A stretch of DNA of 64,000 nt from Natronomonas marina. Its GTDB lineage: Archaea > Halobacteriota > Halobacteria > Halobacteriales > Haloarculaceae. The stretch is taken from assembly GCF_024298905.1 (NCBI RefSeq), contig NZ_CP101154.1, forward strand, positions 1,984,001-2,048,000. Reading direction: 5' to 3'. Below the pieces are notes generated by a model that saw only the letters and a program-made list of their open reading frames with translations, made no database searches and was not told the DNA's origin. The position numbers and the translations under genes are program-made. The stretch's first letter is position 1. Every line of letters begins with the position of its first letter. Shown piece after piece: positions 8,325 through 10,426 of the stretch.

Positions 8325-8577
8325 CTACCCGAGGAAGTCCCGCAGGACCGCTCCGAACCCGGCGGCGCCGATGCCGAACGTGACGATGCCGCCGATGCCG
8401 GTCAGCGTCAGACCGCCGTTTATCGCCGCGCCGACCAACAGCGGCTTCGTCCAGCCGTCCTCGTGACCGACGAGTCGGTCGCCGACGGCGAGGAAGGCGA
8501 TGGACGCGCCGACGGCCCAGGCAAGATACGCCACGAGGAGGAGCGGTACCGCAATGAAGATGCCGATGATGTTGACT
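8325..8577 (-). pseudogene. Membrane protein, C-terminal half, separated by IS insertion
   Basis: This is the distal part of a membrane-protein gene cut by the element at 8578-10154. Read from 8577 it supplies one base plus VNIIGIFIAVPLLLVAYL and two more hydrophobic stretches, ending GAVLRDFLG. The frame joins exactly with the fragment at 10155-10426: att-ac then a-gtc-aac, giving ITVNIIGIF and an uninterrupted 174-residue protein. A GTG at 8534 could initiate a 69-residue remnant, but there is no promoter-like element for it other than whatever the insertion sequence provides. Confidence 0.75.
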
Positions 8578-8750
8578 TCCTCCCACGGCTAAAGCCGTGG
8601 GATTCCTCCGTGGGCAATCCGGCCAGCCGATTGCCCCGGCTGTGAACTTGCGGGTTCGCTGAGGCTGGTTTGGTCGGGCGACCGCGACTGTTCCCGAAAT
8701 ACTGTGGGTCTCCAGCCGTGGTCGTCCCACTCCCAGTACGCCCCGTCAGC
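8578..8750 (-). ncRNA. Predicted TnpB guide RNA (reRNA/omega RNA) scaffold
   Basis: TnpB nucleases use an RNA transcribed from the 3' end of tnpB through the right end of the element, with the flanking genomic sequence as guide. Here the tnpB stop lies inside the end hairpin at 8582-8601, so such an RNA would overlap the last coding part and continue into the host gene. Sense overlapping RNAs have been reported for IS1341-type genes in Halobacterium salinarum. The 5' boundary given is a guess; only the end hairpin is directly visible. Confidence 0.35.
8582..8601. repeat. Right-end hairpin of the IS element
   Basis: CCCACGGC-TAAA-GCCGTGGG is a perfect 8-base stem. The tnpB stop codon (8589-8591) lies within it. 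It matches the hairpin at the other end at all but the loop bases. Confidence 0.85.
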
Positions 8751-10055
8751 GGGTGCGTCCCTGCCGCGTCCAACAGACAGGGCAGCAGGCCGAGCCATCG
8801 GCCCTACTTCGTCTTGCAGCAGATTCCACGCCCCAGCTACATCGCTGTGAGCGTCTAAGTCACACACGTAGCAGCGGAACGAGTCACCAGCACGGTGAAC
8901 GTCCTCCGACCCACACGCCGGGCACTCGCTACTTGAATCCGCCTCGTTCACTTCTTTGACGGTGATTCCAACGTCTCCGAGCGTGAGTTCGAGCCGGTCG
9001 GTGAGCTGCCCGTGACTCCAAAATGCGTGCGTTTTCTCGTTCACCGTAGCGGACCAGTGCGTGGACAGTACGTCGGAAAGGTCGCCGACGTACACCGTGT
9101 CTACGTTCCGTTCCAGCAGCCACTCAGCAGCGTGCTTCACCGCCGCGTTCCGGCTGTGGTCACGCTTTCGCGTTCGCTCGTCGTACAACCGCTGAATCCG
9201 AGGACTCGAATACCGCTCCTCGGGCAGTTCAGATTGCCGACGGGCGATTTTCGCCGAATACTGCCGGAACTGCTTGAATTGGGGACGAGCGTGGTAGACG
9301 GCGGTTTCGCCGGTGGTGGTGACGATGGCGAGGGTGTTGTTCGCGCCGACGTCGATGGCGGCCGAGTGCGTCGCGTTCTCCGGGTGGAGTGTGTGAGTGA
9401 AGGCATCCAGTCGCTGCTCCTGCAATTGGTCTGGCCGAATGCGAACCGGATGCTTGACGCGAACCGTGTCGGCCGCCTCGTCGTAGGTGAGTTCCAACCT
9501 CGAATCGTCACCGTTCCACTGCGGGTCACCACGGGCTTCGAGCGTGACGCGCTCTTGATACTCGAAGTCGTACTTGTCTTCTAACACGTCACCGACGCCA
9601 AATTCCAGCGTACTCGTGTCCTCGTTCCAGTCGAAGGTGTAGAGGTCGTTGCGGACGAGGCCGTGCAGGTCGTACCCGTCGTTTCGGTTGCCCCAGTAGC
9701 CAGGCGGACTGGGTTTCTCCGTCACGCTGGGGTCGTCACCGTGGTATTTGTCGAGGAGTCGGAAGAACGACCGCCACGCTTCGCTATTCTTCCGGGCGAC
9801 CTGCTGGCACGTTGCTGTCCCGAGGACGGGTGCGTACTCGTCGTACAAGTCGTCGTATGCTACGTCCCAGACGTCTTTGTCGTCGTCGAAGTAGGCTTGG
9901 CGGCGTCGGTAGGTGATCTGATTCCACAGGGGGGCGTGGGCGGCCAACCACTCGAACAAGCACTCCCGATACCGGTCACTGATTGGTTCGGCGGTGTACT
10001 CGTTCGTTCGCTGTGGTCGTCCACTCACCAGTGGTAATATGTCACTGGCCGACAC
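8589..10055 (-). CDS. tnpB: TnpB RNA-guided endonuclease (IS1341-type)
   Basis: The 488-residue protein is a full TnpB. The split RuvC active site is intact: Asp235 in AIDVGANNTLA, Glu371 in EVNEADSSSECP and Asp405 in DAHSDVAGAWN. The zinc finger between the last two motifs has Cys378, Cys381, Cys395 and Cys398. The N-terminal 220 residues hold the helical and beta (REC/wedge-like) parts. Residues after about 412 form a polar low-complexity tail overlapping the right end. TnpB uses the element-end RNA to cut target DNA next to the transposon-adjacent motif and favours retention of the element. No frameshift or stop is present, so it may be active. Confidence 0.95.
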   Translation of the reverse strand: MSASDILPLVSGRPQRTNEYTAEPISDRYRECLFEWLAAHAPLWNQITYRRRQAYFDDDKDVWDVAYDDLYDEYAPVLGTATCQQVARKNSEAWRSFFRLLDKYHGDDPSVTEKPSPPGYWGNRNDGYDLHGLVRNDLYTFDWNEDTSTLEFGVGDVLEDKYDFEYQERVTLEARGDPQWNGDDSRLELTYDEAADTVRVKHPVRIRPDQLQEQRLDAFTHTLHPENATHSAAIDVGANNTLAIVTTTGETAVYHARPQFKQFRQYSAKIARRQSELPEERYSSPRIQRLYDERTRKRDHSRNAAVKHAAEWLLERNVDTVYVGDLSDVLSTHWSATVNEKTHAFWSHGQLTDRLELTLGDVGITVKEVNEADSSSECPACGSEDVHRAGDSFRCYVCDLDAHSDVAGAWNLLQDEVGPMARPAALSVGRGRDAPADGAYWEWDDHGWRPTVFREQSRSPDQTSLSEPASSQPGQSAGRIAHGGIPRL

Positions 10056-10116
10056 TAAACGTTGGGATTGCAGGCAGGCATTCGACCGTGGACTGTCCCC
10101 GCTTTGTCGGCTTCAT

Positions 10117-10136
10117 CCCACGGCTAAAACCGTGGG
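10117..10136. repeat. Left-end hairpin of the IS element
   Basis: CCCACGG-CTAAAA-CCGTGGG forms a 7-base stem about 18 bases inside the left end. It is the partner of the right-end hairpin and the likely recognition structure for a Y1 transposase acting on single-stranded DNA. Confidence 0.85.
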
Positions 10137-10154
10137 CTTTCGCCTTGCAGTTCT

Positions 10155-10426
10155 GTAATGACGAGCACGAGGATCACCAGCCCGAGGAAGACGAGACAGA
10201 TCAGCCCGTAGAGGAACGATCCCAGCGGTTCCTCGACGACGGTCGCCATCTTCCCGAGGGTGTACTCCTCCGCGACCGCGATCAGGATGGCGCCGACGAC
10301 GAGCGTCGTCAGAAACGCCCCGACGGCGCTGCCGAGCAGGTTCACCAGCGGGCGGCCGGCCGACGGCGCCGGGTCGGCCGACACCTGGACGAGGAGGGCA
10401 AGGTCGATCGATGCGAGGAGCGACAT
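10155..10426 (-). pseudogene. Membrane protein, N-terminal half, truncated by IS insertion
   Basis: ATG 10426 opens MSLLASIDLALLVQVSADP, a signal-like hydrophobic start, then two transmembrane segments (LVNLLGSAVGAFLTTLVVGA and a second ending LVILVLVIT). The native frame ends at the insertion; translation would run into the element as ELQGESPRF and stop. A TATA element lies at 10453-10460, about 27 bases before the ATG, so the fragment is probably still transcribed. Joined with 8325-8577 it gives a four- to five-helix haloarchaeal membrane protein with a conserved GWxKPLLVGAAINGGLTL segment. I know no function for this family. Confidence 0.8.

What the first reader, a model, noticed from the sequence alone, without database searches (positions are those of the whole stretch)
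8560..8620. Predicted TnpB guide matches the element's own vacated site
If the guide RNA runs through the right end, its guide is GTCAACATCATCGGCATC-like host sequence preceded by A, and the empty site would present TTAC followed by exactly that sequence. TTAC is thus the predicted transposon-adjacent motif. This is the arrangement that lets TnpB cut empty alleles and promote re-copying of the element. RuvC residues Asp235, Glu371 and Asp405 are intact.
Basis: partly seen in the sequence, partly recalled or inferred. Interest (0 to 1): 0.6.

Follow-up and report, generated by a model that had tools for sequence, protein, structure and literature searches.

The report
Haloarchaeal TnpB element with TTAC site

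Summary
The window holds an IS1341-type (tnpB-only) IS200/IS605 element on the minus strand, 10154-8572, inserted in a small host membrane-protein gene. TTAC (10158-10155) directly flanks the left end, so TTAC as predicted TAM is supported. The right end is wrong by 5 nt: GTCAA (8576-8572) belongs to the element (RE cleavage site TCAA, as in IS608). Host sequence resumes at 8571 with CATCATCGGCATC. Evidence: a 99.8% identical element pair in the same genome ends exactly at TTAC and GTCAA; conservation across 24 elements stops there; joining TTAC|CATCATCGG restores the host frame as in 18 uninterrupted homologues. So the guide is CATCATCGGCATCTTCATTG, not GTCAACATC... RNA-level constraint over 8802-8572 and a covarying terminal hairpin support an omegaRNA reading through the right end. 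D235, E371 and D405 are present, but E371 is the relocated 'Ealt' glutamate; the canonical position (324) is Gly. A guide matching the vacated site is how every TnpB element is built, so the match itself is not surprising. No real TTAC+guide empty allele was found, and the genome's only Y1 transposase gene has an in-frame stop. Verdict: known kind, coordinates corrected. A side lead (HgcC RNAs) may be more novel.

The parts
8572..10154 (-). IS1341-type IS200/IS605 element (1583 bp), left end at 10154, right end at 8572
   Evidence: homology limits of other copies, identical pair L036/L037, conservation edge, restored host frame
10155..10158 (-). TTAC, host target site kept at the left flank; predicted TAM
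   Evidence: same tetranucleotide as IS608
10137..10140 (-). AAAG, left guide (GL) tetranucleotide at the base of the left hairpin, as in IS608
   Evidence: IS608 GL = AAAG
10117..10136 (-). left-end hairpin CCCACGGTTTTAGCCGTGGG
   Evidence: sequence; conserved in other copies
8589..10055 (-). tnpB, 488 aa, Ealt-type (D235, G324, E371, D405); runs 12 codons past the stop position of its 74% relatives
8572..8802 (-). predicted omegaRNA/reRNA scaffold overlapping the 3' end of tnpB
   Evidence: third-codon-position conservation 0.51 -> 0.86 with change point at 8802; fold z = -3.54
8602..8605 (-). GAAT, right guide (GR) tetranucleotide at the base of the right hairpin, as in IS608
   Evidence: IS608 GR = GAAT
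8582..8601 (-). right-end hairpin CCCACGGCTTTAGCCGTGGG
   Evidence: covariation: 97.9% of cells paired, score 0.715 against 0.195 shuffled, 0/500
8572..8575 (-). TCAA, right cleavage site, last bases of the element
   Evidence: IS608 CR = TCAA
8552..8571 (-). predicted guide (16-20 nt) CATCATCGGCATCTTCATTG, host sequence
   Evidence: first host base; guide length inferred from ISDra2
10155..10426 (-). 5' part of the interrupted host gene (small membrane protein)
   Evidence: homologues L040-L047 and L064-L076
8325..8571 (-). 3' part of the interrupted host gene

Best explanation
It is a transposase-less (IS1341-type) member of the IS200/IS605 family, inserted 3' of TTAC in a haloarchaeal membrane-protein gene. 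Shown by sequence: element limits TTAC|...|GTCAA, IS608-like end signals, RNA-level constraint over 8802-8572, a covarying right-end hairpin, and a TnpB whose RuvC glutamate sits at the alternative (Ealt) position. Inferred: the 3' part of the tnpB transcript is processed to an omegaRNA ending in 16-20 nt of host sequence that starts at 8571 (CATCATCGGCATCTTC...); TnpB with this RNA cuts DNA carrying TTAC directly followed by that sequence, which is the empty site; repair from an allele that still holds the element re-installs it. The occupied allele is spared because the matching sequence there is preceded by TCAA instead of TTAC.
For: Boundaries. Empty site: joined flanks give an uninterrupted 172-aa frame, co-linear with 18 distinct uninterrupted homologues. 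End signals TTAC/AAAG/GAAT/TCAA identical to IS608, and the target has C at +1 (TTAC|C), the base IS608 prefers. RNA: third-position identity rises from 0.51 (408 sites) to 0.86 (69 sites), change point 8802, highest same-sized block elsewhere in the gene 0.62; hairpin covariation; fold z -3.54. Protein: D235, E371, D405 invariant in 22 aligned sequences; model matches Cas12f, TnpB and Fanzor2 structures. No other TTAC+guide site within 3 mismatches in the genome; the element's own right junction shows TCAA. Haloarchaeal sense overlapping RNAs at the same place are expressed in Halobacterium (PMC12558985). ISDra2 sets the mechanism: TAM equals the target site, guide equals the right flank (PMC8612924).
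Against: No transcript or cleavage data for this element. All empty-site homologues found are other species and none carries TTAC plus the guide: most read TCAC, and the one with TTAC (L076) does not match the guide. The genome's only Y1 transposase gene has an in-frame TGA, so excision that would create an empty site may not happen now. The tnpB frame has lost its usual stop, perhaps a first sign of decay. The window does not reach Rfam gathering scores for the sot RNA families.
Confidence: 0.78

Rival explanations
1. One reading: right end at about 8578 and guide (A)GTCAACATCATCGGCATC.
For: RNA through the right end would include these bases in any case.
Against: GTCAA is the shared end of related copies inside and outside this genome and of an identical element pair; the resulting host junction has two extra codons absent from all homologues.
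Confidence: 0.03
2. The TnpB is catalytically dead or a TldR-like RNA-guided repressor, because the canonical RuvC-II glutamate is Gly324.
For: VYVGDLSDVL has Gly where Cas12f/TnpB have Glu.
Against: An exactly reciprocal swap: of 37 TnpBs in the genome 23 have E at 324 and none at 371, 14 have G/S at 324 and E at 371; E371 lies six residues before CxxC, the published Ealt position used by Fanzors (PMC10711439); element ends are intact, unlike a domesticated repressor (TldR features from own knowledge).
Confidence: 0.1
3. A decaying passenger: no functional guide RNA or nuclease is made any more, and the features are inherited from an active ancestor.
For: Single full-length copy, no intact Y1 transposase found in the genome, altered stop codon.
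Against: Frame, catalytic residues, omegaRNA region and both ends are intact.
Confidence: 0.2

Closest known systems
IS608 (IS200/IS605, Helicobacter pylori; PMC5934647)
   Same: TTAC left site, TCAA right cleavage site, AAAG and GAAT guide tetranucleotides at the hairpin bases, preference for C at +1
   Different: IS608 carries tnpA and tnpB; here only tnpB, in an archaeon
ISDra2 TnpB-reRNA (PMC8612924)
   Same: guide RNA from the 3' end of tnpB plus right end plus about 16 nt of flank; TAM equals the target site
   Different: TTGAT TAM; canonical RuvC-II glutamate; biochemically proven
Ealt TnpBs with a D-Phi-G RuvC-I motif, sister group to pro-Fanzors/Fanzors (PMC10711439)
   Same: glutamate six residues before the first CxxC; RuvC-I motif not DPG (DVG here)
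   Different: the text of that survey does not mention archaea; the haloarchaeal group is here tied to GTCA-type right ends
Halobacterium salinarum sotRNA/omegaRNA elements (RF02656, RF02657; PMC12558985)
   Same: haloarchaeal IS200/IS605 tnpB with a sense RNA over its 3' end and a right-end hairpin
   Different: the window RNA does not reach the Rfam gathering score of these families

Membership tests
IS200/IS605 family, IS1341 group (tnpB only) | Subterminal hairpins, no terminal inverted repeats, insertion 3' of a fixed tetra/pentanucleotide without target duplication | tested here: met
IS200/IS605 family, IS1341 group (tnpB only) | tnpB present, no tnpA inside the element | tested here: met
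   only tnpB is recognised between 10154 and 8572
TnpB RNA-guided nuclease | OrfB_IS605 and TNB/zinc-ribbon domains, RuvC D-E-D | tested here: met
   glutamate at the alternative position
TnpB RNA-guided nuclease | omegaRNA overlapping the tnpB 3' end and reaching past the right end | tested here: inconclusive
   comparative evidence for the scaffold up to 8572; transcription past 8572 not testable here
TnpB RNA-guided nuclease | TAM-dependent cleavage of DNA | not testable with these tools
   needs an experiment
Ealt subgroup of TnpB | no Glu at the canonical RuvC-II site; Glu six residues before CxxC | tested here: met
   G324, E371-x6-CxxC
pro-Fanzor/Fanzor | DPG motif in RuvC-I together with Ealt | tested here: not met
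   motif is DVG at D235
TldR (nuclease-dead TnpB repressor) | loss of RuvC catalytic residues and of transposon ends | tested here: not met
   D, Ealt and D invariant, both ends present
Haloarchaeal sot RNA, RF02656/RF02657 | covariance-model match above gathering score | tested here: not met
   no such match in the window; relative L109 matches RF02656 below gathering

The most novel reading that the evidence does not exclude
The haloarchaeal GTCA-ended TnpBs form a lineage of active nucleases with the Fanzor-type relocated glutamate that persists in a genome without a working Y1 transposase, purely by cutting empty alleles of the host gene and being copied back, i.e. as RNA-guided homing elements.
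Probability: 0.15. Interest if true: 0.55.

Novelty: new member of a known kind. Interest (0 to 1): 0.27.

Why it matters
The corrected coordinates decide whether a cleavage or small-RNA test of this element would work: the guide starts at 8571 and the target is TTACCATCATCGGCATCTTC. The reciprocal Ecan/Ealt split among 37 TnpBs of one genome, matching their right-end class, offers a compact natural set for testing what relocating the RuvC glutamate does.

Tried and rejected
TldR or dead nuclease was rejected as first choice. Fanzor/pro-Fanzor membership was rejected because RuvC-I is DVG. A single-protein search of IMG/VR found nothing; an alignment search found only four distant contigs, so the AlphaFold model rests on five sequences (mean pLDDT 72.6) and the Foldseek matches have low global TM-scores. 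They confirm the family but not the position of E371 in the active site; no coordinates were available to measure distances. RNAalifold on the whole scaffold alignment was weak because of indels, so only the terminal hairpin is claimed as covarying. A TTAC+guide empty allele was sought in 20 genomes of the genus without success.

Full report
What is there. The region holds tnpB on the minus strand (8589-10055, 488 aa) with OrfB_IS605 and Cas12f1-like TNB domains. It interrupts a small membrane-protein gene whose 5' part ends at 10155 and whose 3' part resumes at 8571. The locus L064 in genome G001 of the window's genus shows the same alignment as L040 of Natronomonas sp. CBA1123, so the host is probably Natronomonas (inference).

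Where the element ends. Four lines of evidence give the same limits. First, BLAST of the element against its own genome finds related ends whose similarity typically starts at the TTAC (query 22-23) and stops at query 1609-1610, which is window 8572-8571. Second, two 99.8% identical elements at different sites in the same genome (L036, L037) share sequence from TTAC to GTCAA and nothing outside. Third, in 24 right ends anchored on GGAGGAWG the next bases T, C, A, A are conserved and the fifth is random (0.07 bits); closely related copies in other genomes (L097, L098, L099, L103, L105, L106) also end ...GGAGGATGTCAA followed by unrelated DNA. Some subfamilies end GTCAC or GTCAT instead (L031/L035, L051/L052). 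Fourth, joining the flanks as TTAC|CATCATCGG restores a 172-aa frame...VLVITIIGIFIAVPL..., co-linear with uninterrupted homologues such as ...VLAITIIGIVVAIPF...; 18 distinct homologues were aligned.

End chemistry. The four short signals of IS608 - left site TTAC, left guide AAAG, right guide GAAT and right site TCAA - are all present at the expected places, and the target has the preferred C after TTAC. This explains the boundary mechanistically: TnpA cleaves after TTAC and after TCAA by base pairing with these tetranucleotides (PMC5934647). The element has no transposase. The genome search found one Y1 transposase gene, next to a different tnpB, and it has an in-frame TGA; movement may therefore have ceased or depend on a transposase from elsewhere.

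The guide RNA. Against five relatives about 74% identical in protein (one of them partial), third-codon-position identity is 0.51 over the body of the gene and 0.86 after a change point at 8802; the highest block of equal size elsewhere in the gene is 0.62. Conservation continues past the relatives' stop codon and ends at GTCAA. The 231-nt segment folds better than shuffles (z -3.54), and the terminal hairpin keeps 97.9% of its pairs through extensive compensatory change (0 of 500 shuffles reach the score). This is what an omegaRNA scaffold would look like. Haloarchaeal sense overlapping RNAs at this place are expressed (PMC12558985). That the transcript crosses 8572 here is inferred.

The guide and the empty site. 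The predicted guide begins at 8571: CATCATCGGCATCTTCATTG. Its match to the vacated site is a consequence of element architecture shared by all such TnpBs (PMC8612924), not a special property. Within three mismatches of TTAC plus 16 nt, the genome has only the element's own right junction, where TCAA replaces TTAC, and one site without a TAM. So the occupied allele is expected to be spared. Among uninterrupted homologues none carries TTAC with this guide sequence: the drive-like role could act only on empty alleles of the same lineage, which were not seen.

The nuclease. D235, E371 and D405 are invariant among 22 aligned sequences. However, E371 is not the canonical RuvC-II glutamate. That position is Gly324, aligned with the Glu of Cas12f. 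E371 lies six residues before the first zinc-ribbon CxxC, the 'Ealt' position described for Fanzors and some TnpBs (PMC10711439). In this genome 23 TnpBs have Glu only at the first position and 14 only at the second, and all 14, but none of the 23, have GTCA-type right ends. This clean swap argues for a working, relocated active site and against a dead enzyme. RuvC-I is DVG, so it is not a pro-Fanzor.

Side lead. A sub-threshold Rfam match (HgcC, RF00062) led to above-threshold HgcC RNAs in other archaea of the phylum. They share the GGAGGAGGUCA end and lie at one end of TnpB elements of about 1.3 kb with tnpB on the opposite strand, or in copies of about 170-219 bp without tnpB. HgcC was still called functionally unresolved in 2017 (PMC5732400). 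This suggests that HgcC is a separately transcribed TnpB guide RNA; it was not pursued to proof.

Verdict. A new member of a known kind. TAM right, guide shifted by 5 nt, mechanism plausible but untested, moderate-to-low interest.

Noticed in passing
L143-L153 (genomes G148, G195, G176), e.g. L148 1901-2120 and L146 about 811-2121: Rfam HgcC (RF00062), an archaeal ncRNA still described as functionally unresolved in 2017 (PMC5732400), ends in the same hairpin + GGAGGAGGTCAG as TnpB right ends. Above-gathering copies form one end of elements of about 1.3 kb with tnpB on the opposite strand (L146, L147, L153) or of about 170-219 bp tnpB-less copies (L144, L148, L149, L151) with different flanks after GTCAG; HgcC may be a separately transcribed TnpB guide RNA carried on its own mini-element.
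   Followed up: partly
G000:C1:1166840-1166890 (L054 from 2001) and G000:C1:1474453-1474504 (L141); 17 in 40 genomes: Minimal elements of about 50 bp: TTAC + AAAG + a single hairpin + GGAGGANGTCA, i.e. left and right ends fused on one hairpin. 17 matches against 0 for the reversed control pattern; G008 and G049 have three each.
   Followed up: partly
Own genome G000, 37 TNB-domain genes: 23 canonical-Glu and 14 relocated-Glu TnpBs coexist; the relocated-Glu set coincides exactly with GTCA-type right ends, while other subfamilies use other flanking motifs and right ends (TAGTTCAC, TAGTTTAC, TAGCTCAA).
   Followed up: partly
L039 1501-1857 (G000:C1:2768405-2768761): The only Y1 transposase gene detected in the genome has an in-frame TGA inside the Pfam match, although 37 tnpB genes are present.
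   Followed up: partly
window 8589-8632 (-): tnpB reads 12 codons past the stop position of its 74% relatives (CAA where they have TAA) and ends inside the right-end hairpin.
   Followed up: partly
L142 1990-2150, L140 1760-2150 (own genome): Orphan omegaRNA-like right ends: L142 without a detectable tnpB nearby, L140 with only short tnpB fragments.
   Followed up: no
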